DNA of 64,000 bases from NCBI GenBank assembly GCA_025060615.1, contig JANXBS010000003.1, positions 110,441 to 174,440 on the forward strand. The letters are read 5' to 3'. Origin of the DNA: Anaerolineae bacterium (GTDB lineage: Bacteria > Chloroflexota > Anaerolineae > DUEN01). Position numbers and translations under genes: made by a program. Position 1 is the stretch's first letter, and every line of letters starts with the position of its first letter. This document shows positions 42,563 to 60,422 of the stretch, piece by piece. Under the pieces are notes generated by a model. The model ran no database searches, was not told where the DNA came from, and saw only the letters and a program-made list of their open reading frames with translations.

Positions 42563-42657
42563 GCCTCCTAAAGGCTGTGCCAATACCTCTAGGGCCGGGG
42601 GAAAAGCCCAGAAGGGACGACGATTAGCCAGTGAAACATCCAATGGAGGGATGTCTT

Positions 42658-44178
42658 ATGAACCTGATGATAGAGCACCACATCCTGATTGATCCGATCA
42701 CGCGTCTCGAGGGGCATGGGAAGATAGACATCTTCCTGAACGAGCGTGGGGAGGTAGAACGAGCATACTTCCAGGTGCCAGAGCTACGCGGCTTTGAAGT
42801 CTTCGCCCGCGGGCGGCCAGCTGAGGACATGCCGCAGCTCACCTCGCGCATCTGCGGCGTCTGCCCGCTGGCCCATCACATGGCCTCGACCAAGGCGCTT
42901 GACGATCTATATCAGGTGGAGCCACCCTCTGCAGCCCGCAAAATCCGCGAGCTCGATTACTCCATATTCATGCTGGAGGATCACGCCCTGCATGTCTATG
43001 TCCTGGCTGGCCCCGACTTTATCGTTGGACCGCAAGCTCCCAAGGCCATGCGCAATGTGCTGGGGGTAATCCAGACTGTCGGCCTGGAGGTGGGTCAGAA
43101 GGTGATCGCGATGCGCCGCAAGCTTCGGGAGCTGGAGACGTATCTGGGCGGCAAGGTGATCCATCCCGTGTTGGGGTTGCCGGGTGGCGTCGCCAAGGGC
43201 ATTGCGCCAGAGGACCTGCCTCGCTTTCGAGAGATAGCCGAGGAAGGGGTGGAATTCGCCCTCTTCACACTGAACGTCTTCCGGGATCTGGTGCTCAAAA
43301 ACTCCGAATACGTCCAGCTCATCACCTCGGAGACCTTCACCCATCGCACGTACTACATGGGGCTGGTGGATGCTGACAATCGCGTCAACTTCTACGACGG
43401 GATGTTGCGGGTGGTGGATCCTGACGGGAGAGAGTATGTCCAATTCCGAGCTCAGGACTATCTGCAGTTCATTGCTGAGCACGTCGAGCCGTGGAGCTAT
43501 ATCAAGTTCTGCTACCTGAAGCCGGTGGGGTGGAAGGGGTTCATAGATGGCCCAGAGAGCGGGGTGTACGCAGTAGCCCCCTTGGCGCGGCTGAACGCAG
43601 CCGAGGGCATGGCGACGCCGCTGGCACAGCAGGCCTACGAGGAGTTCTACCGCACGCTAGGTGGAAAGCCCGTCCATCATACGCTGGCGACCCACTGGGC
43701 GCGCGTGATCGAGATGATCTACGCCGCTGAGCGGATGCGAGAGTTGGTCAACGACCCAGAGATCATCAGCGCCGAACTGCGCATCCTGCCAACGGCTACG
43801 CCGAAGGTCGGGATCGGCGTAGTGGAAGCGCCGCGTGGCACCCTCATCCACCACTACGAGACGGATGAGCAAGGGCTTATCCGCAAGGCGAACCTGATCG
43901 TCGCCACCCAGAACAACGCCGCTCGCATCGCCATGTCAGTGGATAAGGCGGCGCGCGAGTTGATCCATAACGGGCAGGTCTCCGACGGATTGCTCAATAT
44001 GGTAGAGATGGCCTTCCGAGCCTATGATCCGTGTCATGGCTGCGGCACCCATGCATGGCCAGGACAGGTGCCGTTGCAGATTCGGATCTATGGCCAGGAT
44101 GGCGCCTTCCAAGGAGTGCTGACCAATGCCTCAGATGAATGGAGAGAAGCGGTGTCTAGTGTTAGCGTTGGGCAATGA
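42658..44178 (+). CDS. mvhA: [NiFe]-hydrogenase large subunit, MvhA/group 3-like
   Basis: This is the catalytic H2-activating subunit, 506 residues from the ATG at 42658 (GGAGG at 8 bases; an ATG at 42631 would add 9 residues). Nickel ligands are in the N-terminal RICGVC (Cys66, Cys69) and C-terminal DPCHGCGTH (Cys459, Cys462). After His465 a 41-residue tail follows that must be cleaved by a maturation protease. The ITRLEGHGKID N-terminus is typical. With MvhG, MvhD and HdrA it should form a cytoplasmic group 3c-type hydrogenase. The protease gene starts inside the sequence for the cleavable tail. Confidence 0.94.
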   Translation: MNLMIEHHILIDPITRLEGHGKIDIFLNERGEVERAYFQVPELRGFEVFARGRPAEDMPQLTSRICGVCPLAHHMASTKALDDLYQVEPPSAARKIRELDYSIFMLEDHALHVYVLAGPDFIVGPQAPKAMRNVLGVIQTVGLEVGQKVIAMRRKLRELETYLGGKVIHPVLGLPGGVAKGIAPEDLPRFREIAEEGVEFALFTLNVFRDLVLKNSEYVQLITSETFTHRTYYMGLVDADNRVNFYDGMLRVVDPDGREYVQFRAQDYLQFIAEHVEPWSYIKFCYLKPVGWKGFIDGPESGVYAVAPLARLNAAEGMATPLAQQAYEEFYRTLGGKPVHHTLATHWARVIEMIYAAERMRELVNDPEIISAELRILPTATPKVGIGVVEAPRGTLIHHYETDEQGLIRKANLIVATQNNAARIAMSVDKAARELIHNGQVSDGLLNMVEMAFRAYDPCHGCGTHAWPGQVPLQIRIYGQDGAFQGVLTNASDEWREAVSSVSVGQ

Positions 44179-44686
44179 GCTATTGGGAGACGATGCGGTC
44201 GCGCTGCATCTAGCGCGCCGGCTGCGCGAGGTGCTCTCTGGATCAGTGGATGTGATGGAGTCCACCGAGACGGGCTTGGGCTTACTGGATTTGCTGGTGG
44301 GCTACGATACCATCTTCATCCTGGACGCCATCGAGGTCGAGAAGCCTGATGGCCATTTGCGGCTCATCACTGGTACCAACTCGATGCCCCTGCTCGGTGG
44401 AGGGATTCACTTCCTGGGGCTGCCAGATGTCCTACACCTGTGCCATGCGTTGGGATTGGCCGTGCCAGCTCGGGTCATGGTGGTGGGCATCCCCATCGCG
44501 TCAGTGCAGGAAATACGGGAAGGGCTGTCACTTGAGATGGCCGCGCGGCTGCCAGGGTGGACCCAATCCGTGCGCGGGTTGATCGAAAAACATCTGAGTT
44601 GGTGCAGCGACGGGAGCCAAGGAGGCGAGAGCCATGAAAGTGAAAGACGTTTTGCAGATGAAAGGGGGGCAGGTCCTATCCATTAA
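44126..44686 (+). CDS. Hydrogenase maturation protease (HyaD/HycI-like)
   Basis: A 186-residue endopeptidase expected to remove the C-terminal tail of MvhA after nickel insertion. The family opening LVLALGNELLGDDAVALHLARRL contains the metal-binding GNxLxxDD. Further features are the Glu/Asp ligands in STETGLGLLDLLVGYDTIFILDAIE and the His of VLHLCHALGL. AAGGAG lies 9 bases before the ATG. The gene overlaps mvhA by 53 bases and the CBS gene by 53 bases. The last about 17 residues (ESHESERRFADERGAGPIH region) look like read-through of the overlap, not a conserved end. Confidence 0.9.
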   Translation: MPQMNGEKRCLVLALGNELLGDDAVALHLARRLREVLSGSVDVMESTETGLGLLDLLVGYDTIFILDAIEVEKPDGHLRLITGTNSMPLLGGGIHFLGLPDVLHLCHALGLAVPARVMVVGIPIASVQEIREGLSLEMAARLPGWTQSVRGLIEKHLSWCSDGSQGGESHESERRFADERGAGPIH

Positions 44687-45074
44687 CGCTGATACCTCCA
44701 TTCAGGAGGCCATTCGACTGATGACTGAGCAGGACGTCGGTTCGCTGCTAGTGCGCGATGCCTCGGGCCAGTTCGTTGGCCTGATCACCGAGCGACAGAT
44801 CATCCGCTATTGGAGTCAACATCCGGAGGCCACTGCTACCGTACCGGTGCGCGAGGCGATGAACCGAAACCCGCTGGTGGCCTTCCCCGATGATGACTTG
44901 GACTATGTGATGAGCGTGATGACCGAGAACCGGGTGCGTCACGTGTTGGTGCTGTCCGACGGGGAGTTGGTGGGAATCGTCTCCATCGGTGACATGGTGA
45001 AGGCCCAGTTGGAGGATACACGGGTCGAAAACCGCTATCTGCAGGATTTCATCGCCGCGAAATACATCTCCTGA
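44634..45074 (+). CDS. CBS-domain pair protein
   Basis: A 146-residue protein consisting of two CBS domains: INADTSIQEAIRLMTEQDVGSLLVRDASGQFVGLITERQIIR and AFPDDDLDYVMSVMTENRVRHVLVLSDGELVGIVSIGDMVK. Such pairs bind adenine nucleotides (AMP, ATP or SAM) and report energy status. AAGGAGG precedes the ATG, within the end of the protease gene. It is the last gene of the Hdr/Etf/hydrogenase cluster and may tune that complex to the cell's energy charge. Its target is not known. Confidence 0.92.
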   Translation: MKVKDVLQMKGGQVLSINADTSIQEAIRLMTEQDVGSLLVRDASGQFVGLITERQIIRYWSQHPEATATVPVREAMNRNPLVAFPDDDLDYVMSVMTENRVRHVLVLSDGELVGIVSIGDMVKAQLEDTRVENRYLQDFIAAKYIS

Positions 45075-49587: not shown

Positions 49588-52500
49588 ATGTTATGGAATT
49601 GTCCCAAATGCGGCGCCGAACAGCCCCAGGAAGCTAACTTTTGTATCTCATGCGGAATGCCCCTCCGCACCTATTGCCCTCGCTGTGACACGCCTATTCG
49701 GGCCGGCGCTCGCCGCTGCGGGCGGTGCGGCACACCACTGGCCGATCCGCTTTCCTTCTCGGAGCTGTTCGAAATACCTACCATCCTGCAAGGCCGCTAT
49801 GAGATCGAGCAACGCCTGAAGCGAGGATATACCACTGCAGTCTACCTGGCCCGTGATCTGAGGCTGGGACGCCATTGCATCGTTAAAGAGTTCAACCCGC
49901 GCCGGCTAGTGGATGAGCTCGAACGAGACGAGGCCCAACGCTCGTTCCAAGCTGAAGTCGCACGCTGGGCCCAGATTCACCATCCCAACTTGGCCCGCAT
50001 CCAAGGCATGTTCATCCAGGCCGACCACCCTTATCTGGTCATGGAGTGGGTGCGCGGACGGAGCCTCCGCCATCTAATCACCGATCCCAGCGTGGAAATC
50101 CGTGAGGCTGATGCCGTAGCTTGGGTGTTACAGATCTGTGAAGCATTGGCCGTCTTACACGCTCAGAACCCGCCGCTTATCTTCGGGGACCTAAATCCTG
50201 GACATGTGATGATCACGGCAGATGGGCAAGTTAAGCTGATAGACTTTGGGCTCAGCGCCTGGTTTACGCCGTGGGATCGGGGGATCCCGCGCTACCGGGG
50301 CAGCCCTGGCTATGCCGCTCCTGAGCAACGCGAGCGATGGGAGGCGGACGCCCGCAGCGATCTCTACGCGTTGGGTGGTCTGCTTTACTACGCGCTGACC
50401 CGTCAGGCCCCTAATCAGCCTCCTATCCGCCTGAACGAGCTGTCACCCGCGCTGGCGGAGGTCGTTCGGCAGGCGCGTCAGCGCGATCCAGAACGTCGAT
50501 TCTCATCGGCACAGGCTATGCAAGAGGCCCTGGCAAGAGCCGTCCATCTACCCTCTCACAAACCTGCAGTGATTCAGGCCTCATCTGGCCGCGTCGCTGA
50601 GCAGCCTACACCTGATCCCTGGAGCGCGCTGCGCGCTCAGCTCAGGGAGCAAGCCAATGCCGACTGGCTGCGCACGGTGCGGCGCTTCTACGGAGGACAG
50701 ATCCTCGACTGGCTGCGGCGTGAGGCACACCGGCTGGGAAAAGAGGGGCAGACTCAGGCTGTGCGACAGGTCGAGGCCGCAGTGGCAGAGGCGGAATCGC
50801 TGCTAGCCCAGGGAGAATTGGAGGATGCGCTGGGCCGTCAGGTGATCGTCGCCCGCTGGCTGACGAGGATCGGGGCGGGCTCCGCCAGTCCAGAATTGAG
50901 CCTCCAGCCGCAGCGCTTAGCATTTGGGGAGCTGACGCGCCGAGTGGTCAAGCGCGCTGTGCTGCGCCTTCGCAATACTGGCCCCACAATGTTAGTGGGC
51001 GAGGTGCAAAGCCTGGCGCCATGGCTGGAGGTCCGTGATGCTCGCTTTGCCTGTGGGCCGGATGAGGAGGCCCGCGTGACCGTGGTCGCCCTGGGCAAAC
51101 GACTGCCATCAGAAAATGTACGAGCCGTGCGCGCCTTGCACGTGATCACCAACCGCGGCGAAGTATGGATGCCGGCCTCAGCCAGCCTAGTGGTGCCGAA
51201 GCTGGCCATCAGCCCCGAGGCGCTCGACTTCGGGCAGGTAGTTCACGGCCAGACCGCCGATGCCGAGCTCATCGTCGCCAACCAGGGCGGAGGCGAGGTC
51301 GAGGGAACCATCCAGAGCGCCGTCCCCTGGCTTTCAGTGATGCCAGATCGCTTTCACGTCCCATCGAGGGAGCGGCAGACGATTCGCGTGCGCTTTCATG
51401 GAGGCCTGGCACCAATGGAAATGCAAGGGGCCGCCGACGTCCTGCTGGTGAACAGCGATGATGGCCGGGTGAAACTCCCTGTGCGCTGGCGATGGGCTGA
51501 GCCGGGGCTGATGCTAACCCCCACCGTGCTCCTCTGGGGAGAGCAAAGGCGCGAGGCGCAGCCCGAAATGAGCCTGACGATCACCAACTCAGGTACGGCG
51601 GTACTGGAGGGAGCCGTCCGCTCGCGCTGTTCATGGGTGCACGTGACGCCCGAGGCTTTCACCTGCCCGCCTGGCCGATCGGTCACGATAGCAGTGAGGG
51701 CCACCCTGGGCGAGCTGCCGCCAGGTCGTACCAGCGTCGGTGAGGCGTTGGTCATCGAGAGCAACGCAGGGCGACGAACGGTGTCAGCCTCTGTGGATAT
51801 CCTGGCCCCTGAACTGCAAGTCAAGCCCCCCTCTCTGGACCTGGGCGAGGTGATGTGGGGCGAGGCCAGCCAGGCGGCTCTGCGCATCGCCAACCGAGGA
51901 TCACTGCCGCTGATGGCTCAGCTGGAGAGTCTGTTCCCTTGGCTACATGTGGAGCCGGCGGAGGTCGTTTGCCCGCCGGGTGCGTTGACCCGTGTGAAGG
52001 TAGAAGCGCGCACCGAGGAGATGCTTCACGGTGGTGAGTGGCATGCGGTGCCAGGCATACGCGTCGAGAGCAACGCCGGGCGCAGAGAAATCCCGATCTC
52101 TCTGCTGGTCCGTAAGCCGGAGCTACAATTGACGCCGGAGTTTCTGGATTTCGGTGTCATCCCTCGTCAAGGAGTGGGGCAGACTATGCTCTTCATCAGC
52201 AACCCGGGCACGGCGCCGCTCACCTGGTCCCTCTCCAGCGACGCGCTCTGGCTAGAGGTACCCACATCTCAGGGCATCACCAACCCTGGGGAGACGTCTC
52301 AAGTGCACCTGTACGCTTACGGGCTAGCCGTACCCGCCGATCAGGATGAGGCCCAGATGAGCCTGATCATCGAAAGCGACGTAGGTGAGCAGGTGGTGCA
52401 CGGCATCGTAATGATAGCTCGCCCGCAGTTATGGGTAGACCCACTGCGGCTGGACCTGGGCATCAGCGCCAACTATGCGCCGGTGGAAGGCCTGCTCAGC

Positions 52501-53076
52501 CTCTTCAACCGCGGCCTGGGCGATCTCACTGGCACCGTTCAGACCACTGTGCCCTGGTTAACAGTGGAGCCGGTTGAATTTCAGGTTCCAACCGGCGGGC
52601 AGCAGCCGATCCTCGTGCGCGCCATACCGGATGGCCTGCGCGAGGGCGAGACGTTGGTAGAAGGGGCGCTGGAAGTTGTCAGCAACGCTGGCCGAGAACG
52701 GGTGGATGTGCGCTTAGAGATCCGCCTCAGCGGTGAGCTGGTAATCGAGCCGCAGGGACTTCTCTGGAGGCAAGGGGAAATGGCACCCGTGCTACGGCTG
52801 CGCAATGTGGGGCGCGCGCCTATCTCGGTGCTCATTCGGCCGCAGGCGAGCTGGCTGCATGTGAATCATCAGGTGTTAATGATCAAGCCTGGCCGGATCG
52901 CTACAGTGCAGTTCACTCTGGACGAGGCGATTTTGCCCTCTGCTCCCATCGTCGAAACAGAGCTTGTGCTAGATTGGGCTGGCCAGATCGTACGCATACC
53001 AGTAGTGGTAGAGACTTATGCCTTTGTGGCGAGGCTTCGGCCTGATGACGCCAGCATATCATCTATTGAGAATTGA
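49588..53076 (+). CDS. Zinc-ribbon / pseudokinase / seven Ig-like repeat protein
   Basis: A 1162-residue protein. Two zinc ribbons (Cys5/8/19/22 and Cys30/33/44/47) precede a Ser/Thr kinase-like domain (about 65-315). Lys100, Glu123, Asp201 and the DFG Asp219 are kept. The glycine loop is degenerate (LKRGYTTAVYLA), and the catalytic loop reads FGDLNPGH, so the HRD Arg, the catalytic Lys (Asn203) and the metal-binding Asn (His206) are replaced. A helical region (about 345-430) leads to seven repeats of about 100 residues, each opening like LxLxPxxLDFGxV and containing a PWLxVxP motif. No membrane helix or signal is present. Probably a large cytoplasmic scaffold or atypical kinase. Confidence 0.87.
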   Translation: MLWNCPKCGAEQPQEANFCISCGMPLRTYCPRCDTPIRAGARRCGRCGTPLADPLSFSELFEIPTILQGRYEIEQRLKRGYTTAVYLARDLRLGRHCIVKEFNPRRLVDELERDEAQRSFQAEVARWAQIHHPNLARIQGMFIQADHPYLVMEWVRGRSLRHLITDPSVEIREADAVAWVLQICEALAVLHAQNPPLIFGDLNPGHVMITADGQVKLIDFGLSAWFTPWDRGIPRYRGSPGYAAPEQRERWEADARSDLYALGGLLYYALTRQAPNQPPIRLNELSPALAEVVRQARQRDPERRFSSAQAMQEALARAVHLPSHKPAVIQASSGRVAEQPTPDPWSALRAQLREQANADWLRTVRRFYGGQILDWLRREAHRLGKEGQTQAVRQVEAAVAEAESLLAQGELEDALGRQVIVARWLTRIGAGSASPELSLQPQRLAFGELTRRVVKRAVLRLRNTGPTMLVGEVQSLAPWLEVRDARFACGPDEEARVTVVALGKRLPSENVRAVRALHVITNRGEVWMPASASLVVPKLAISPEALDFGQVVHGQTADAELIVANQGGGEVEGTIQSAVPWLSVMPDRFHVPSRERQTIRVRFHGGLAPMEMQGAADVLLVNSDDGRVKLPVRWRWAEPGLMLTPTVLLWGEQRREAQPEMSLTITNSGTAVLEGAVRSRCSWVHVTPEAFTCPPGRSVTIAVRATLGELPPGRTSVGEALVIESNAGRRTVSASVDILAPELQVKPPSLDLGEVMWGEASQAALRIANRGSLPLMAQLESLFPWLHVEPAEVVCPPGALTRVKVEARTEEMLHGGEWHAVPGIRVESNAGRREIPISLLVRKPELQLTPEFLDFGVIPRQGVGQTMLFISNPGTAPLTWSLSSDALWLEVPTSQGITNPGETSQVHLYAYGLAVPADQDEAQMSLIIESDVGEQVVHGIVMIARPQLWVDPLRLDLGISANYAPVEGLLSLFNRGLGDLTGTVQTTVPWLTVEPVEFQVPTGGQQPILVRAIPDGLREGETLVEGALEVVSNAGRERVDVRLEIRLSGELVIEPQGLLWRQGEMAPVLRLRNVGRAPISVLIRPQASWLHVNHQVLMIKPGRIATVQFTLDEAILPSAPIVETELVLDWAGQIVRIPVVVETYAFVARLRPDDASISSIEN

Positions 53077-53906: not shown

Positions 53907-55616
53907 TCACCACTTCAGGATTGCGCCCTTGCTAGCTGAGGTCGCCATCGTCCGGTATTTGCTTAGGTACGGCGGCAGTGGCCCCTTGTCTATTGGCCGC
54001 CAGCGGGCGCGTCGCTCCGCCAACTCTGCCTCGCTTAGCTCCACATCTAACCGCCGGTTAGGGATGTCGATCACGATGATGTCCCCTGGCTCCAATAGCC
54101 CGATCGGCCCGCCGGCCGCCGCTTCCGGGCTAATGTGGCCAATGGAGCAGCCGCGCGAGCCACCCGAAAAGCGTCCATCGGTGATGAGCGCCACCTTGTC
54201 GGCCAGCCCCATGCCGGCGATTTGCGCCGTCGGTCCCAGCATCTCCTGCATGCCTGGGCCTCCCTTGGGTCCCTCGTAGCGGATCACCACCACGTCGCCC
54301 GGCTTCACCTGGCCGGATAGGATGCCCTTTGAAGCGTCCTCTTCGCTATTGAAAATCACCGCAGGGCCGCGGAAGCGCAGCATTGTCGGTGGGACCCCGG
54401 CTGTCTTGACTACTGCGCCCTCAGGGGCCAGATTGCCAAATAGGATAGCCAGGCCGCCATCCTGGCTGTAGGCTTTTTCCAGCGGACGAATACACTCTGG
54501 GTCGCGCGTGGGGTGTCCAGCGATGTTCTCGCCTAGCGTTTTGCCCGTCACAGTCATGCAATCCAGGTGCAAAGTTCCTGGCTTCTTGGACAGCTCGTAC
54601 AGGATGGCAGAGACCCCACCTGCCCGATCTACATCTTCAATGTGATAGTGAGACGAGGGGCTGACCTTGCACAGGCACGGCACGCGCGCGCTCACCTCGT
54701 TCAACCGCTCCAGTGGGTACTCAATCCCCGCTTCATAGGCGATGGCGATGGTGTGTAGCACGGTGTTCGTCGAGCCCCCCATCGCCATATCCAGGGCAAA
54801 GGCGTTGTCAATCGCCTCCAGCGTGACGATGTCGCGCGGTTTCAGATCCATCTCCAGCAGACGCATGATCTGAAACGCGGCTTGGCGAGCGAGCTCCTGC
54901 CGGCGCGGGTCCACAGCTAGGATGGTGCCATTCCCTGGCAGGGCCATGCCCAGCGCCTCGCACAGGCAGTTCATCGAGTTGGCGGTGAACATGCCCGAGC
55001 AGGAACCACAAGTTGGGCAGGCGTAATCTTCCAGCGTCTTGAGTTGCTTTTCGGTGATGATGCCAGCCCGATACGCGCCTACCCCTTCAAATACCGAGAT
55101 CAGGTCTATCACCTGGCCCTCGGGAGTTACGCCGGCCTTCATAGGGCCACCGGAGATGAAGATGGTGGGGATGTTGAGACGCATGGCCGCCATGAGCATC
55201 CCTGGCACGATCTTGTCGCAGTTGGGGATGCAAATCAGCGCGTCGAAGCTATGCGCCGCCACCACCGTCTCCACCGAATCGGCGATGAGCTCGCGGCTGG
55301 GCAGAGAGTACTTCATGCCCATATGCCCCATCGCGATGCCATCGTCTACGCCAATGGTGTTGAACATGAATGGCACACCGCCGGCCTCGCGCACCGCTTG
55401 CCGCACTACCTCACCGAACTCCTTTAGGTGTACGTGTCCCGGGATGATGTCAATATAGGAGTTGGCGATGGCGATAAACGGCTTATCCATATCCTCATCG
55501 CGCACGCCCACCGCCTTCAACAGCGAGCGATGTGGGGCGCGCTCGAAGCCGCGCTTGATCGTATCTGAGCGCATGGGACGCCGTGGTGACTTCCCATCTC
55601 CGCGATGATAGCTCAT
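53907..55616 (-). CDS. ilvD: Dihydroxy-acid dehydratase
   Basis: A 569-residue iron-sulfur dehydratase converting 2,3-dihydroxy-isovalerate and 2,3-dihydroxy-3-methylvalerate to the 2-keto acids of valine/leucine and isoleucine synthesis. Cluster cysteines lie in [12 protein letters not shown] and [36 protein letters not shown] and the C-terminal [21 protein letters not shown] are family signatures. AGGAGGGAGA precedes the ATG. It is on the same strand as the leucine operon but separated from it by the KOW-like gene. Confidence 0.97.
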
Positions 55617-55766
55617 GAGATCTCCCTCCTGACGCTAGTTTGGGGGAAAATCAAGCTCATCGTTGATCTATTCCAAATAGAGATTGCCAGAAAGGCAAAC
55701 AATCCCTTCACCACGCCTGACGAAGGGCGGACAGACTGTGGGCCAATAGATAGCTCTAGCTCTATA

Positions 55767-55775
55767 TGGTATAAT
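55767..55775 (+). promoter_or_regulatory. Extended -10 promoter of the KOW-like gene
   Basis: TGG-TATAAT (55767-55775) lies 66 bases before the ATG at 55841. No good -35 is present. Confidence 0.5.
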
Positions 55776-55840
55776 AGCAGTAACGTTTTGATCTTTAGCC
55801 TTCATACCGATGTTGGGATGGAGCACATAGGAGGTGTGAG

Positions 55841-56032
55841 ATGGCTGAGCCGAACATCACCGTAGGAAGCCGAGTGCGAGTGAAGCCTGCACGCCCCTTC
55901 GCCGGGCGAGAGGCCGAAGTGCGAGAGGTCAGCGTCACGCGCGTGCGTGTGTATTTGCTCCCAGACGGCCCGGAAGTGAATATGCTGCCTCGCGATGTCG
56001 AGCCCATTGAGTCGCTCCAACGGGCCGCCTGA
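55841..56032 (+). CDS. Small KOW-like protein, 63 aa
   Basis: A 63-residue protein behind a strong AGGAGG and an extended -10 promoter, and followed by a terminator hairpin, so it is a genuine gene. The sequence ITVGSRVRVKPARPFAGREAEVREV resembles a KOW/SH3-like nucleic-acid-binding strand pair (V-x-V-x-x-G-x-F-x-G). The end (LPRDVEPIESL) also fits small-barrel proteins. Function unknown; RNA or ribosome binding is only a guess. Confidence 0.75.
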   Translation: MAEPNITVGSRVRVKPARPFAGREAEVREVSVTRVRVYLLPDGPEVNMLPRDVEPIESLQRAA

Positions 56033-56058
56033 TCGTCGCTTGCGCTCTCGCACGCAAT

Positions 56059-56092
56059 GGGGCTTCTCCGCCGATCGAAGTGGAGAAGCCCC
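56059..56092. terminator. Terminator hairpin between convergent genes
   Basis: GGGGCTTCTCC (56059-56069) and GGAGAAGCCCC (56082-56092) form a perfect 11-bp stem with a 12-base loop, between the KOW-like gene and the end of cimA. No long T-run, but the position suits a shared terminator. Confidence 0.7.
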
Positions 56093-56107
56093 GTTCCCTC
56101 TCACCGG

Positions 56108-57736
56108 CTATTGAGCGATCCGCGCTGCGCTCGTCGGTTCCTGAAGCGAAATCGCTGGCTCCTCGGCGGTAGTTTCCTCCTCTCCGTTCAATAAGGCGTA
56201 CTCCACCGAATCGGCTAACGCCTGCCATGAGGCCTCGATGATGTTAGTGGAGGCTCCCACGGTTCCCCAACTCCGGCGGCCATCAGTGGAGTCAATTAAC
56301 ACGCGCACATGCGCTGCCGTGGCCGACTGCGAGTCAAGGATGCGCACCTTGTAGTCCGTCAACTGCACTTTCGCCAGTTGCGGGTAGAACTGTAACAGTG
56401 CCTTTCGCAGCGCCTTATCCAACGCGTTGACCGGGCCGTTACCGTCTGAGACGGTGTGGAAGATCTGATCCCCCACGCGCACCTTGACCGTCGCCTCGCA
56501 GATCATGCCGCGGCCTTGGCGGTGCTCCACCGTCGCTGTGTAATCAATCAGCTCAAACGGCCGCTTGTAATCCGGGCGAGCTCGCCGCATCAATAATTCT
56601 AGGCTGCCCTCGGCGCTCTCAAACGCGAAACCTTTATGCTCTAGTTCCTTGATATGTTGCAAAATGCGACGTTCGGTCGCCCGATCTAGCCCGTCCAGCC
56701 CAAACTCAGCTCGCTTCACAGCGATATTATCCTTCCCCGCTAGCTCCGATACGAGCACGCGCTTCCGGTTCCCCACCAGCGCTGGGTCAATATGCTGATA
56801 TGTCCGCTCGTTTTTGACCATGGCGTTGACATGCGCGCCGCCCTTGTGGGCGAAGGCGCTATACCCTACGAACGGCTGGTGTGGATTCGGGCTAAGGTTG
56901 GCCAGCTCTGACACGAACAGGCTCAGCTCCCGCAGCCCGGCCAACCGATCGGCCGGGATGCACTCGTAGCCCATTTTGAGCTGCAAATCAGGGATAATAG
57001 AGACCAGGTTCGCATTGCCACAGCGCTCACCATACCCATTGATCGTGCCCTGGACCTGAGTACACCCCTGCCGAACTGCCGCCAGGGAGTTTGCCACTGC
57101 TACGTCACTGTCGTTGTGGGCATGGATGCCTAGGGGCGTATGAACGGCTTCCTGGGCTGCGCGTACTCCTGCCTCTATCTCCCATGGCAGAGAACCGCCA
57201 TTGGTATCGCACAACACGATCCAATCGGCTCCCGCCTTAGCAGCCACGCGCAACGTCTCCAGGGCATATTCGGGATTGGCCTTCCAGCCGTCAAAAAAGT
57301 GCTCAGCGTCGTAGATGACCTCGCGGCCCTGCGCCTTCAAATAGCGAACGCTGTCCTCAATCATGCGTAAGTTCTCGTCCAGGGTTGTACGTAGGACATC
57401 CCGCACATGCAGGTCCCACGTCTTGCCGAAAATGGTGACCACCGGTGTCTCCGCATCTAGTAGCAGCCGGATCTGGGGATCCTCCTCCACGGCCATGTCG
57501 GCCCGGCGGGTGGAGCCAAAGGCTGCAATGCGGGCGTGCTGAAGACCCAGCGAACGGACGTGTTGAAAGAACTCCACGTCCTTAGGGTTCGAGCCGGGCC
57601 AGCCACCTTCGATGTAATCCACGCCAAAAGCGTCTAGCCGTTGAGTGATCCGCAGCTTATCCGCTAGCGAGAAGTTGACGCCTTCACCTTGGGCGCCGTC
57701 ACGCAACGTTGTGTCGTAGATCCACACCTTGGCCAT
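56108..57736 (-). CDS. cimA: (R)-citramalate synthase
   Basis: This enzyme condenses pyruvate with acetyl-CoA to citramalate, opening the threonine-independent route to isoleucine. The 542 residues start at the ATG at 57736, which follows AAGGAGTG; a longer frame from 57838 would add 34 unrelated residues. YDTTLRDGAQGEGVNFSLADKLRI is the CimA-type opening (LeuA has DGEQSPG here). GIHAHNDSDVAVANSL and the C-terminal regulatory LeuA dimer domain follow. It is the last gene of the leu operon and shares LeuCD and LeuB with leucine synthesis. Confidence 0.93.
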   Translation of the reverse strand: MAKVWIYDTTLRDGAQGEGVNFSLADKLRITQRLDAFGVDYIEGGWPGSNPKDVEFFQHVRSLGLQHARIAAFGSTRRADMAVEEDPQIRLLLDAETPVVTIFGKTWDLHVRDVLRTTLDENLRMIEDSVRYLKAQGREVIYDAEHFFDGWKANPEYALETLRVAAKAGADWIVLCDTNGGSLPWEIEAGVRAAQEAVHTPLGIHAHNDSDVAVANSLAAVRQGCTQVQGTINGYGERCGNANLVSIIPDLQLKMGYECIPADRLAGLRELSLFVSELANLSPNPHQPFVGYSAFAHKGGAHVNAMVKNERTYQHIDPALVGNRKRVLVSELAGKDNIAVKRAEFGLDGLDRATERRILQHIKELEHKGFAFESAEGSLELLMRRARPDYKRPFELIDYTATVEHRQGRGMICEATVKVRVGDQIFHTVSDGNGPVNALDKALRKALLQFYPQLAKVQLTDYKVRILDSQSATAAHVRVLIDSTDGRRSWGTVGASTNIIEASWQALADSVEYALLNGEEETTAEEPAISLQEPTSAARIAQ

Positions 57737-57904
57737 TGGACACACTCCTTGTCTAGCGATTAGTAGGCAGTAAAGGTTGGCGGATTGGCAGCGGTCCGCC
57801 ATCAGCGATCCACCATCAGCTGTTCGCTGTGCATCCAATGGCGCGGGCGCCGATAGCGCCCGGTGACCTACCTCCTTTCCTCTTCGCCATCACGTTCACC
57901 TCTT

Positions 57905-58693
57905 TCAGCGAGACATGAGATCGGCCACGGAGTCCAGGATCAGATTGGGCCAGATACCGCGGGCCAGATCGCCCTGGCGGAACTTGCCCGTGCGCACGAG
58001 GACCCCGTACAGCCCTACGCGTTGAGCGCCTTTGATGTCCATCTCGACGTCATCGCCCACCATCGCCACCCGTTCAGCCGGCAGGCCTAGGTCGTGCAGG
58101 GCTGCCTCGAACAGGGCCTGCTCTGGCTTGCCGATAATGGTGGCCGACTTTCCCGTGGCGTATTCCAGCGCTGCGATGAACGGCCCGGCATCCAGCCGCA
58201 GGCCGTCTTTTGCCAGCCAGTATTTGCTGCGTCCCAGGCCGATCAACTGGGCTCCCTCTTCCAGCAGCAGCCGAAAGGCGCGGTTCAGCCGCTCGAAGGT
58301 CCAGGCATCTCCTAGGTCGCCTACTACTACGTAATCCGGATGCTGTTCATCTATCGGCACACCTGCGAAATCGCCCAGAGCTCCCTCTGGCACCAGAAGA
58401 TATGCGCTTGCTTCGCGTGCCCGCAGGAACTCCCCGGCAGCCCACGGCGGGCTGTATACCTCGTCCTCAGCGACTGGGAAGCCCATACGGGTGAGCCGCT
58501 CGGCCAGGACGGCTCGCCCGAGCGAGGTGGTGTTGGTGAGGAAGCGGAGCGGCATACCTGCCTCCTTGAGCGCGCGTACCACCTCCACCGCGCCGGGGAT
58601 CAGCGCGTCGCCGGTGTACAAGGTGCCATCCAGGTCGAAGATGATCGCTTGGATATGGGCCAGCTCAGCTCGCAGCCTCATATCCGCTCGCAT
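57905..58693 (-). CDS. HAD-superfamily phosphatase, NagD/LHPP-like (subfamily IIA)
   Basis: A 262-residue phosphatase of the HAD-IIA group. Motifs are the nucleophile [13 protein letters not shown], motif II FLTNTTS, the cap region about 80-180, the Lys in [13 protein letters not shown] and motif [21 protein letters not shown]. The start may be the ATG at 58693 or the in-frame ATG at 58681, which overlaps the leuB stop as ATGA. It is wedged between leuB and cimA in the leucine operon; its substrate, and whether it has a role in branched-chain amino acid synthesis, are unknown. Confidence 0.9.
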
Positions 58694-59763
58694 ACTGCGG
58701 CTCCCATCTCTGCGGTCCCCACCGTTCGCTCCCCTGGCCGGGCGATATCCACCGTCCGATATCCATCGGCCAACGCAGCGGCCACTGCGCCCTCCACAGC
58801 CCTGGCCTCCTGTTCTAATCCTAGCGAGTGGCGCAGCAACATGGCGGCCGAAAGGATGGCCGCCAGCGGGTTGGCGATGCCGAGCCCGGCGATGTCTGGC
58901 GCCGAGCCATGAATCGGCTCGTATAACCCACGGGGCAGTCCTAGTGCGTTCGTCGCCTCGCCCAGCGACGCCGAGGGCAGCATCCCCATCGAGCCGGCCA
59001 GCATCGCCGCCTCGTCGGTGAGGATGTCACCGAACATGTTTTCGGTCACGATCACATCGAAGCTAGCCGGCCGGCGGATCAGGTGCATGGCCGCCGCATC
59101 CACCAGGATGTGCTCCAGCTCCACATCCGGGAACTCACGCGCCATCAGCTCGCTTGTCACTCGCCGCCACAATCGAGATGAAGCCAGCACGTTTGCCTTA
59201 TCCACCGAGGTCAATCGCCTGCCTCGGCTGCGCGCCGCCTGCGCGGCTACCCGAACCACTCGCTCGATCTCCAAGCGCGTGTATAGCATGGTGTCATAAG
59301 CCTGCTCGCCATCCGGCCCTGCCTCCTGTCGCGGGCCAAAATACAGCCCACCAGTAAGCTCCCGCACCACTAGGATGTCAACGCCGTCCAGCACCTCGGG
59401 CCGCAACGGGGAGGCATGAAGTAGCTCGGGGAACAGCTTGACTGGCCGCAAGTTAGCGAACAGCCCCAACGCCTTGCGGATACCCAGCAATCCCTGCTCA
59501 GGCCGTACTCTGGCAGCGGGGTCGTCCCATTGGGGGCCGCCCACTGCGCCGAGCAGAATGGCGTCGGCGGTCTGACAGGCCGCCAGGGTCTCCTCAGGTA
59601 GGGCCGTGCCGGTGGCGTCTATAGCGCAGCCGCCCAACAAATGGTGCTCGAACTTGAAACGATGGCCGAACTTGCGGCCGACCGCCTCCAGCGCCTTGTG
59701 CGCCTCAGCTGTTACTTCTGGGCCGATGCCATCGCCGGCCAGGATAACGATTTTTGCGTTCAA
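58678..59763 (-). CDS. leuB: 3-isopropylmalate dehydrogenase
   Basis: A 361-residue NAD-dependent oxidative decarboxylase acting on 3-isopropylmalate, and on 3-methylmalate in the citramalate route. The start is a TTG at 59763 ([16 protein letters not shown]), preceded by GGAAGGGG; upstream codons lie inside leuD. Catalytic features are [54 protein letters not shown] and the [36 protein letters not shown] loop. Confidence 0.95.
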
Positions 59764-59825
59764 AGTGGCCCCTTCCAAGACAAGGTCCAAGGGATAATAA
59801 AAGGCCACGGGCGAAGGACGAGGGA

Positions 59826-60422
59826 CTACTTGCCATGACAAGCCTCATAGATGGCGATGAGCGGTTCCTTTGCCAAGAGATACCCTAGATCGTCCACGCC
59901 CTGAAGCAAGCACATCTTCCGGAATGAGTCGATTTCGAACGGGAACGAACGGCCATCCGGAAGGCTCACTGACTGATGGAACAAGTCCACGGTAAGGCGC
60001 GTGGCTGGCATCTCTTCGACCAAATCCCACAGCAGGTTGACCACCTTCATCGGCAACTGCACCGGCAGGAGGCCGTTCTTCAGGCTGTTGTTGTAGAAGA
60101 TATCGGCGAAGCCCGGCGAGATGACGACGCGAAAGCCGTAGTCCAAGAGCGCCCAAGGCGCATGCTCGCGAGAGCTGCCGCAGCCGAAGTTGGGCCCGGC
60201 GATCAGGATCGTCGCACCTTGGTACTGAGGCTGATTGAGCGGGAAATCGGCCCGCAGGGTGCCGTCCGCATTCCGCCGCCAATCGGCGAACAACCCCTCA
60301 CCTAATCCCTCTCGCGTGACGGTGGTGAGATAGCGAGCGGGGATGATCTGGTCGGTGTCTACGTTCTCAGCTCTCAACGGCACTGCCGTGCCCGTATGAC
60401 TCGTAAATGGTTCCATGTTCAT
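59826..60422 (-). CDS. leuD: 3-isopropylmalate dehydratase small subunit
   Basis: A 198-residue swivel-domain subunit of isopropylmalate isomerase. Signatures are [15 protein letters not shown], the [17 protein letters not shown] loop and the [17 protein letters not shown] segment. AAGGTG lies upstream of the ATG. It follows leuC by 27 bases and pairs with it; it probably serves both the leucine and citramalate pathways. Confidence 0.96.

What the first reader, a model, noticed from the sequence alone, without database searches (positions are those of the whole stretch)
49588..53076. Giant zinc-ribbon pseudokinase with seven Ig-like repeats
The architecture of two zinc ribbons, a kinase domain with a broken catalytic loop (FGDLNPGH) and degenerate glycine loop, a helical hinge and seven about 100-residue repeats has no obvious textbook counterpart. 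Without a signal peptide or membrane helix, the repeats should lie in the cytoplasm, unusual for bacterial Ig-like repeats.
Basis: partly seen in the sequence, partly recalled or inferred. Interest (0 to 1): 0.6.

Follow-up and report, generated by a model that had tools for sequence, protein, structure and literature searches.

The report
Dead-kinase scaffold with seven-domain arm
This gene encodes a large protein, probably inside the cell, whose kinase-like head has probably lost its enzyme activity and whose tail is a row of seven domains resembling those in eukaryotic cilia and centrosomes; it represents a distinct family, not found described in the papers searched, of probable scaffold proteins in one class of Chloroflexota bacteria.

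Summary
ORF 49588-53076 (1162 aa) encodes two zinc ribbons, a protein-kinase fold, a weakly conserved helical linker and exactly seven ~102-residue Ig-like repeats, with no membrane helix or signal peptide. It belongs to a discrete family: 25 of 396 genomes of its class carry the same array, and no sampled genome from another class of the phylum does. The family is one clade in a kinase tree. The metal-binding Asn of the catalytic loop is absent in all 26 members read (His in 22) but present in 67 of 67 other kinases compared. The catalytic Asp is lost in most members, on several branches. The window protein and its three close orthologues keep Lys100, Asp201 and Asp219, so 'pseudokinase' is strongly inferred for it, not proved. 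The repeats model at pLDDT 95 and match HYDIN/OCRL ASH and MSP domains, normally cytoplasmic, so cytoplasmic Ig repeats are not odd here. Best reading: a non-catalytic, possibly nucleotide-binding scaffold (as STRADalpha works), with an arm of docking domains. In one sister family the gene sits directly upstream of a c-di-AMP-receptor homologue in all 13 genomes that can be judged. Partner and function are untested. New variant of a known kind.

The parts
49588..53076 (+). Whole gene, 1162 aa, ATG start, TGA stop
   Evidence: orthologues
49600..49665 (+). Zinc ribbon 1 (C5, C8, C19, C22)
   Evidence: Pfam Zn_Ribbon_1/DZR; these four Cys are invariant in 22 full-length members as aligned
49675..49731 (+). 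Zinc ribbon 2 (C30, C33, C44, C47)
   Evidence: Pfam DZR 5-48; only one ribbon is present in G050 and G005
49780..50541 (+). Protein-kinase fold, residues 65-318
   Evidence: Pfam Pkinase E 1e-31, PDB phmmer
49816..49845 (+). Degenerate glycine loop LKRGYTTAVY
   Evidence: canonical first and third Gly missing
49885..49887 (+). Lys100 (VAIK lysine), retained
   Evidence: Lys in 20 of 25 family members
50182..50205 (+). Catalytic loop FGDLNPGH, residues 199-206: Asp201 kept, metal-binding Asn replaced by His206
   Evidence: Asn in 0 of 25 family members, 67 of 67 other kinases
50242..50250 (+). DFG motif (D219), retained here
   Evidence: Asp in 14 of 25 family members
50605..50883 (+). Helical linker, residues 340-432
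   Evidence: no Pfam match; 22.6% mean identity in the family; a similar W..G..WL motif precedes the Ig repeat in other kinases of the class, seen by eye
50893..51195 (+). ASH/Ig-like repeat 1
51196..51501 (+). ASH/Ig-like repeat 2
   Evidence: best stretch of Pfam HYDIN_VesB_CFA65-like_Ig (537-625; whole-protein E 1.7e-23)
51502..51807 (+). ASH/Ig-like repeat 3
51808..52116 (+). ASH/Ig-like repeat 4 (the one modelled, pLDDT 95.3)
52117..52422 (+). ASH/Ig-like repeat 5, most conserved (43% mean identity)
52423..52731 (+). ASH/Ig-like repeat 6, second most conserved (41%), NYAPVEG...FNRG signature
52732..53010 (+). ASH/Ig-like repeat 7, shortest and least conserved

Best explanation
The protein is most likely a cytoplasmic, catalytically dead or near-dead scaffold of the serine/threonine kinase fold. 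Shown by sequence and modelling: the fold assignment, the loss of the metal-binding Asn in the whole family and of other catalytic residues on several branches, the seven fixed ASH-type repeats, and the absence of any membrane or export signal. Inferred: the zinc-ribbon/pseudokinase head docks to a partner, most simply one of the only two ordinary Ser/Thr kinases of this genome or the FHA-like protein encoded beside each, and presents or allosterically tunes it. Also inferred: in this clade the pocket still holds a nucleotide, with Lys100 and His206 standing in for metal coordination as His200 does in STRADalpha, so nucleotide binding may set the head's conformation. The seven ASH domains would form an arm that carries docking sites, above all on repeats 5 and 6.
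For: Catalytic residues decayed while fold residues did not: in 22 full-length members the invariant kinase residues are H132, Q182, L190, P204, G213, P245, D258 and R304, none of them a catalytic residue. Asn 0/25 in the family and 67/67 elsewhere; catalytic Asp 8/25 against 67/67; His206 in 21/25, more often kept than Asp201. The family is monophyletic (25/25, SH 0.966) and Asp is lost on separate branches, including G050 against its same-genus relative G015. Reading frames stay open and full length across genera. Repeats are positionally orthologous (7/7 diagonal for G001 and G050) and repeats 5-6 are as conserved as the kinase domain. Repeat fold: HYDIN PapD-like domain E 1.9e-7, TM 0.81; OCRL ASH; VAP MSP, which are protein-docking domains in eukaryotes. 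G000 has three Pkinase domains including this one; the other two lie next to FHA-like genes, recognised by eye only. STRADalpha: His200 replaces Asn and holds the ATP beta-phosphate without Mg (PMC2686265).
Against: The window protein itself keeps Lys100, Glu123, Asp201 and the DFG motif. No partner was identified. The head could not be modelled (pLDDT 42). No neighbour is conserved across the whole family. His206 is lost in 4 members and Lys100 in 5 of 25, so nucleotide binding cannot be a family-wide requirement. The shape of the arm is assumed from a single-repeat model.
Confidence: 0.68

Rival explanations
1. An atypical but active kinase: in the window's clade Asp201, Lys100 and Asp219 still phosphorylate a substrate, with His206 tolerated in place of Asn, as CASK works without normal metal binding.
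For: The window protein and its three close orthologues all keep K100, E123, D201 and DFG; CASK is an active kinase with a defective metal site (PMC4718504; PMC2686265). By the narrow triad definition the window protein would count as a kinase.
Against: Asn is lost in every member; sister lineages with the same architecture have lost Asp201 or DFG Asp, which argues that the shared role is not catalytic; the glycine loop is degenerate and the catalytic-loop Lys is Asn or His in the clade.
Confidence: 0.16
2. The kinase fold has been reused for another chemistry, such as AMPylation (as SelO) or glutamylation (as SidJ).
For: Known bacterial pseudokinases have done so (PMC12599244); a conserved active-site His with Lys100 is unusual.
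Against: No family-wide set of polar active-site residues remains: 17 of 25 lack Asp201, 11 of 25 lack the DFG Asp, 5 lack Lys100 and 4 lack His206.
Confidence: 0.06
3. A surface or secreted adhesin-like protein, its Ig repeats outside the cell.
For: Many bacterial Ig-repeat proteins are exported; the NCBIfam choice-of-anchor D domain also hits the repeats.
Against: No TM helix and an N terminus that starts with the zinc ribbon, not a signal peptide; repeats closest to cytoplasmic ASH/MSP domains; cytoplasmic-side use of a related repeat in TM kinases of the class.
Confidence: 0.05
4. A decaying relic without function.
For: Catalytic residues are lost piecemeal.
Against: Full-length open frames in many genera and several families of the class, repeat order kept and structural residues invariant.
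Confidence: 0.03

Closest known systems
PknB/StkP-type bacterial Ser/Thr kinases (Pfam Pkinase PF00069)
   Same: Same fold over residues 65-318, detectable by sequence
   Different: No metal-binding Asn, degenerate glycine loop, no TM helix, no PASTA domains; N-terminal zinc ribbons and C-terminal ASH array
STRADalpha (human pseudokinase)
   Same: Asn-to-His change at the same position; in STRADalpha His200 contacts the ATP phosphate without Mg (PMC2686265)
   Different: STRADalpha also lacks the VAIK Lys, HRD Asp and DFG; no Ig array; a parallel, no special kinship implied
Reviewed bacterial pseudokinase families (ActPs1-3, GLW, CP1, DYD, DLHK; MviN, EssB; PMC12599244)
   Same: Kinase fold stripped of catalytic residues; non-catalytic scaffold roles reported for MviN and EssB
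   Different: The review text nowhere mentions Chloroflexi, zinc ribbons or Ig-like domains; several of its families are membrane-linked
HYDIN/CEP192/OCRL ASH and VAP MSP domains
   Same: Same repeat fold by Foldseek (TM about 0.65-0.85) and Pfam HYDIN/Cep192 models
   Different: Bacterial, fused to a kinase fold; sequence identity 12-25%
Titin kinase
   Same: Inactive kinase fold used as a scaffold in a protein built of Ig domains (PMC4042850)
   Different: Different Ig family, no zinc ribbons, different kinase lineage; an analogy only

Membership tests
Protein kinase superfamily (Pkinase fold) | Profile match over the domain above the curated cut-off | tested here: met
   PF00069 110.8 bits, cut-off 31.7
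Active Ser/Thr protein kinase | VAIK Lys, HRD Asp, DFG Asp | tested here: met
   K100, D201, D219 present in the window protein, though lost in many relatives
Active Ser/Thr protein kinase | Metal-binding Asn after the HRD Asp, and intact glycine loop | tested here: not met
   His206 instead of Asn; LKRGYTTAVY
Active Ser/Thr protein kinase | Phosphotransfer activity | not testable with these tools
   needs purified protein
Pseudokinase (narrow definition) | Loss of at least one of VAIK Lys, HRD Asp, DFG Asp | tested here: not met
   triad intact in the window protein; HRD Asp lost in 17 of 25 family members
Pseudokinase (wide definition) | Loss of a conserved residue needed for normal nucleotide/metal binding or catalysis | tested here: met
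   catalytic-loop Asn absent in 25 of 25 members, window included
ASH/MSP (PapD-like) domains | Ig-like beta fold matching solved ASH/MSP structures | tested here: met
   pLDDT 95.3; HYDIN 2e6j TM 0.81, E 1.9e-7
STRAD-like allosteric activator of another kinase | Binds and activates a partner kinase; binds ATP without Mg | not testable with these tools
   only the Asn-to-His parallel was checked

The most novel reading that the evidence does not exclude
The family is a bacterial counterpart of STRADalpha by convergence: a nucleotide-gated pseudokinase that allosterically controls a partner kinase, mounted on a seven-domain ASH docking arm, and wired to cyclic-di-AMP signalling through the PII-like c-di-AMP-receptor homologue encoded directly downstream in one of its lineages.
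Probability: 0.15. Interest if true: 0.78.

Novelty: new variant of a known kind. Interest (0 to 1): 0.52.

Why it matters
Bacterial pseudokinases are little studied, and few have a known job. Here is a discrete family, confined in this search to one class, in which the order of lesions can be read from relatives: Asn to His first, catalytic Asp later and repeatedly. It suggests a kinase fold kept for its shape while the chemistry is discarded, joined to docking domains known mainly from eukaryotic cilia and centrosomes. The window's genome has only two other Ser/Thr kinases, so the list of possible kinase partners is very short and a test of regulation in trans is easy.

Tried and rejected
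A two-repeat alignment (A3) was discarded because rows aligned out of register. PADLOC hits (PD-T4-6, MADS) reflect the kinase fold only; no defence context was seen, so an anti-phage role was not adopted. Conserved neighbours across the whole family: none. MreB lies convergently downstream in three sister genomes but not in the window, and PfkB upstream only in two, so neither was used as evidence of function. The idea that the Phe of FGDL is part of the damage was rejected: 19 of 67 ordinary kinases of the class have it.

Full report
What is there. The open frame 49588-53076 (+) encodes 1162 residues. Pfam places a double zinc ribbon at 5-48, Pkinase at 71-279 (E 1e-31) and HYDIN/Cep192/BACON-type Ig models over the rest. 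Sequence search of solved structures gives PknB and StkP for residues 59-318. The C-terminal 700 residues divide into seven repeats of 101, 102, 102, 103, 102, 103 and 93 residues which align almost without gaps, with a Pro, a Gly and a Trp invariant in 21 repeats from three species. A profile of the repeat finds these seven and no others in the window's genome. There is no hydrophobic stretch able to cross a membrane.

The family. A whole-protein search finds full-length orthologues at 62-65% identity in three genomes of the same taxonomic family and more distant ones elsewhere in the class. The two named records are 'Caldilineae bacterium' and 'Anaerolineae bacterium' MAGs, so the window is from Chloroflexota. 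A profile of the seven-repeat array finds 24 matches of 515-1112 bits plus one partial match of 313 bits at a contig edge (25 genomes) among 396 genomes of the class, then a drop to 160 bits; in 301 genomes drawn from the phylum nothing outside the class exceeds 133 bits. A 26th genome, G015, has the head on a contig that ends before the repeats. The full-length members have the same order: zinc ribbon(s), kinase fold, linker, seven repeats. Repeats are positionally orthologous: each window repeat matches its own-numbered repeat best in G001 and G050 (7 of 7) and in 6 of 7 cases in G045 and G061, less clearly in G038 and G234. The array therefore probably predates the split of these lineages.

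The kinase fold. In 26 members, and in an alignment of 25 of them with 67 other kinase domains from the fetched genomes, the Asn that binds metal is absent in all family members (His in 21 of 25; Arg, Arg, Asp, Val in the rest) and present in 67 of 67 others. The catalytic Asp is present in 8 of 25 against 67 of 67; the aligned residue is Phe in 13, Glu in 2, Ala and Cys in one each. The VAIK Lys is kept in 20 of 25 and the DFG Asp in 14 of 25. The window protein and its three close orthologues keep Lys100, Glu123, Asp201 and DFG, but have His206, Asn or His at 203, Gly at 200 and a degenerate glycine loop. A FastTree phylogeny puts all 25 family members in one clade (SH 0.966), with the Asp lost on separate branches: G050 (Ala) beside G015 (Asp) of the same genus, G005 (Cys), G045/G010 (Glu) and the large f36 group (Phe). 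The residues invariant across 22 full-length members are not the catalytic ones; among them are Pro245 (APE), Asp258 (helix F) and Arg304 (helix I). This is the pattern of a fold under selection without selection for phosphotransfer. It is inference, not an assay, and for the window's own clade residual activity stays open.

The repeats. Repeat 4 modelled with 21 aligned repeats has mean pLDDT 95.3 and is nearly all beta. Foldseek against the PDB ranks the human HYDIN PapD-like domain first (E 1.9e-7, TM 0.81), followed by OCRL ASH, ciliary central-pair proteins and VAP/MSP domains. In eukaryotes these domains are cytoplasmic docking modules (established knowledge), so a cytoplasmic place is expected. 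In the same class, kinases with an intact catalytic loop carry one such repeat between the kinase and TM helices, hence on the cytoplasmic side, and proteins that look by sequence like J-domain proteins carry related repeats. Repeats 5 and 6 are the most conserved (43% and 41% mean identity, against 40% for the kinase fold and 30% for repeat 7), which points to binding sites there.

Neighbours. No gene is a neighbour in the whole family. In taxonomic family f36, a short homologue of the c-di-AMP receptor (PF06153, E 4.7e-20) lies directly downstream on the same strand in 13 of 13 genomes where the contig continues; 11 gaps are 9-130 bases, one is 283, and one (G194) was placed by coordinates only. 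A LarA-like gene nearby is also conserved there, so part of this is general synteny. All 26 family genomes encode c-di-AMP receptors, but in the window's genome they are elsewhere. The window's genome has three Pkinase domains in all: this one, a 599-aa and a 338-aa frame; beside each of the other two lies a gene whose product looks like an FHA protein.

Mechanism. The best-supported reading is a scaffold: a head that binds partners and an ASH arm that carries docking sites. The His at the Asn position has a studied parallel: in STRADalpha His200 replaces that Asn and, with an Arg, holds ATP without Mg (PMC2686265; PMC4718504). Lys100 and His206 are the best-kept pocket residues here, which would suit a similar Mg-independent nucleotide switch, though neither is universal. 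Partner identity is unknown.

Known or new. The 2025 review of bacterial pseudokinase families (PMC12599244) does not mention Chloroflexi, zinc ribbons or Ig-like domains, and open-access literature searches found no description of this architecture; subscription papers were not searched. It is a new family of a known kind of protein, with a new architecture.

Noticed in passing
L083, L086-L093, L095-L097, L103 (f36 genomes): A roughly 95-residue PII-like c-di-AMP-receptor homologue is encoded directly downstream of the pseudokinase gene on the same strand in all 13 f36 genomes that can be judged.
   Followed up: partly
L106-L115, L117: A second conserved kinase in f36 and f8 genomes: zinc ribbon, intact kinase domain (HQDIKPAN-type loop), similar linker, one ASH-like repeat, then TM helices; in G069 and G167 it lies a few kb upstream of the pseudokinase.
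   Followed up: partly
L066, L069, L070, L071: Proteins with what looks like an N-terminal J domain and related Ig-like repeats in other Chloroflexota classes: another apparently cytoplasmic use of these repeats.
   Followed up: no
L170, L171 (G000 C11 and C14): Each of the two ordinary Ser/Thr kinases of the window's genome lies next to a gene for an FHA-like protein, transcribed away from it.
   Followed up: no
L076-L078: MreB is encoded convergently just downstream of the pseudokinase in three sister genomes but not in the window, where PhoU takes that place.
   Followed up: partly
window 53907-60422 (-): Branched-chain amino-acid cluster by sequence: IlvD, citramalate/isopropylmalate synthase-like, HAD phosphatase, LeuB, LeuD.
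   Followed up: no
window 42631-45074: NiFe-hydrogenase large-subunit-like gene, hydrogenase maturation protease-like gene and a CBS-domain protein, overlapping one another.
   Followed up: no
L166 4842-5537 (-), G000 C26: A 232-residue frame holding two c-di-AMP-receptor domains in tandem.
   Followed up: no
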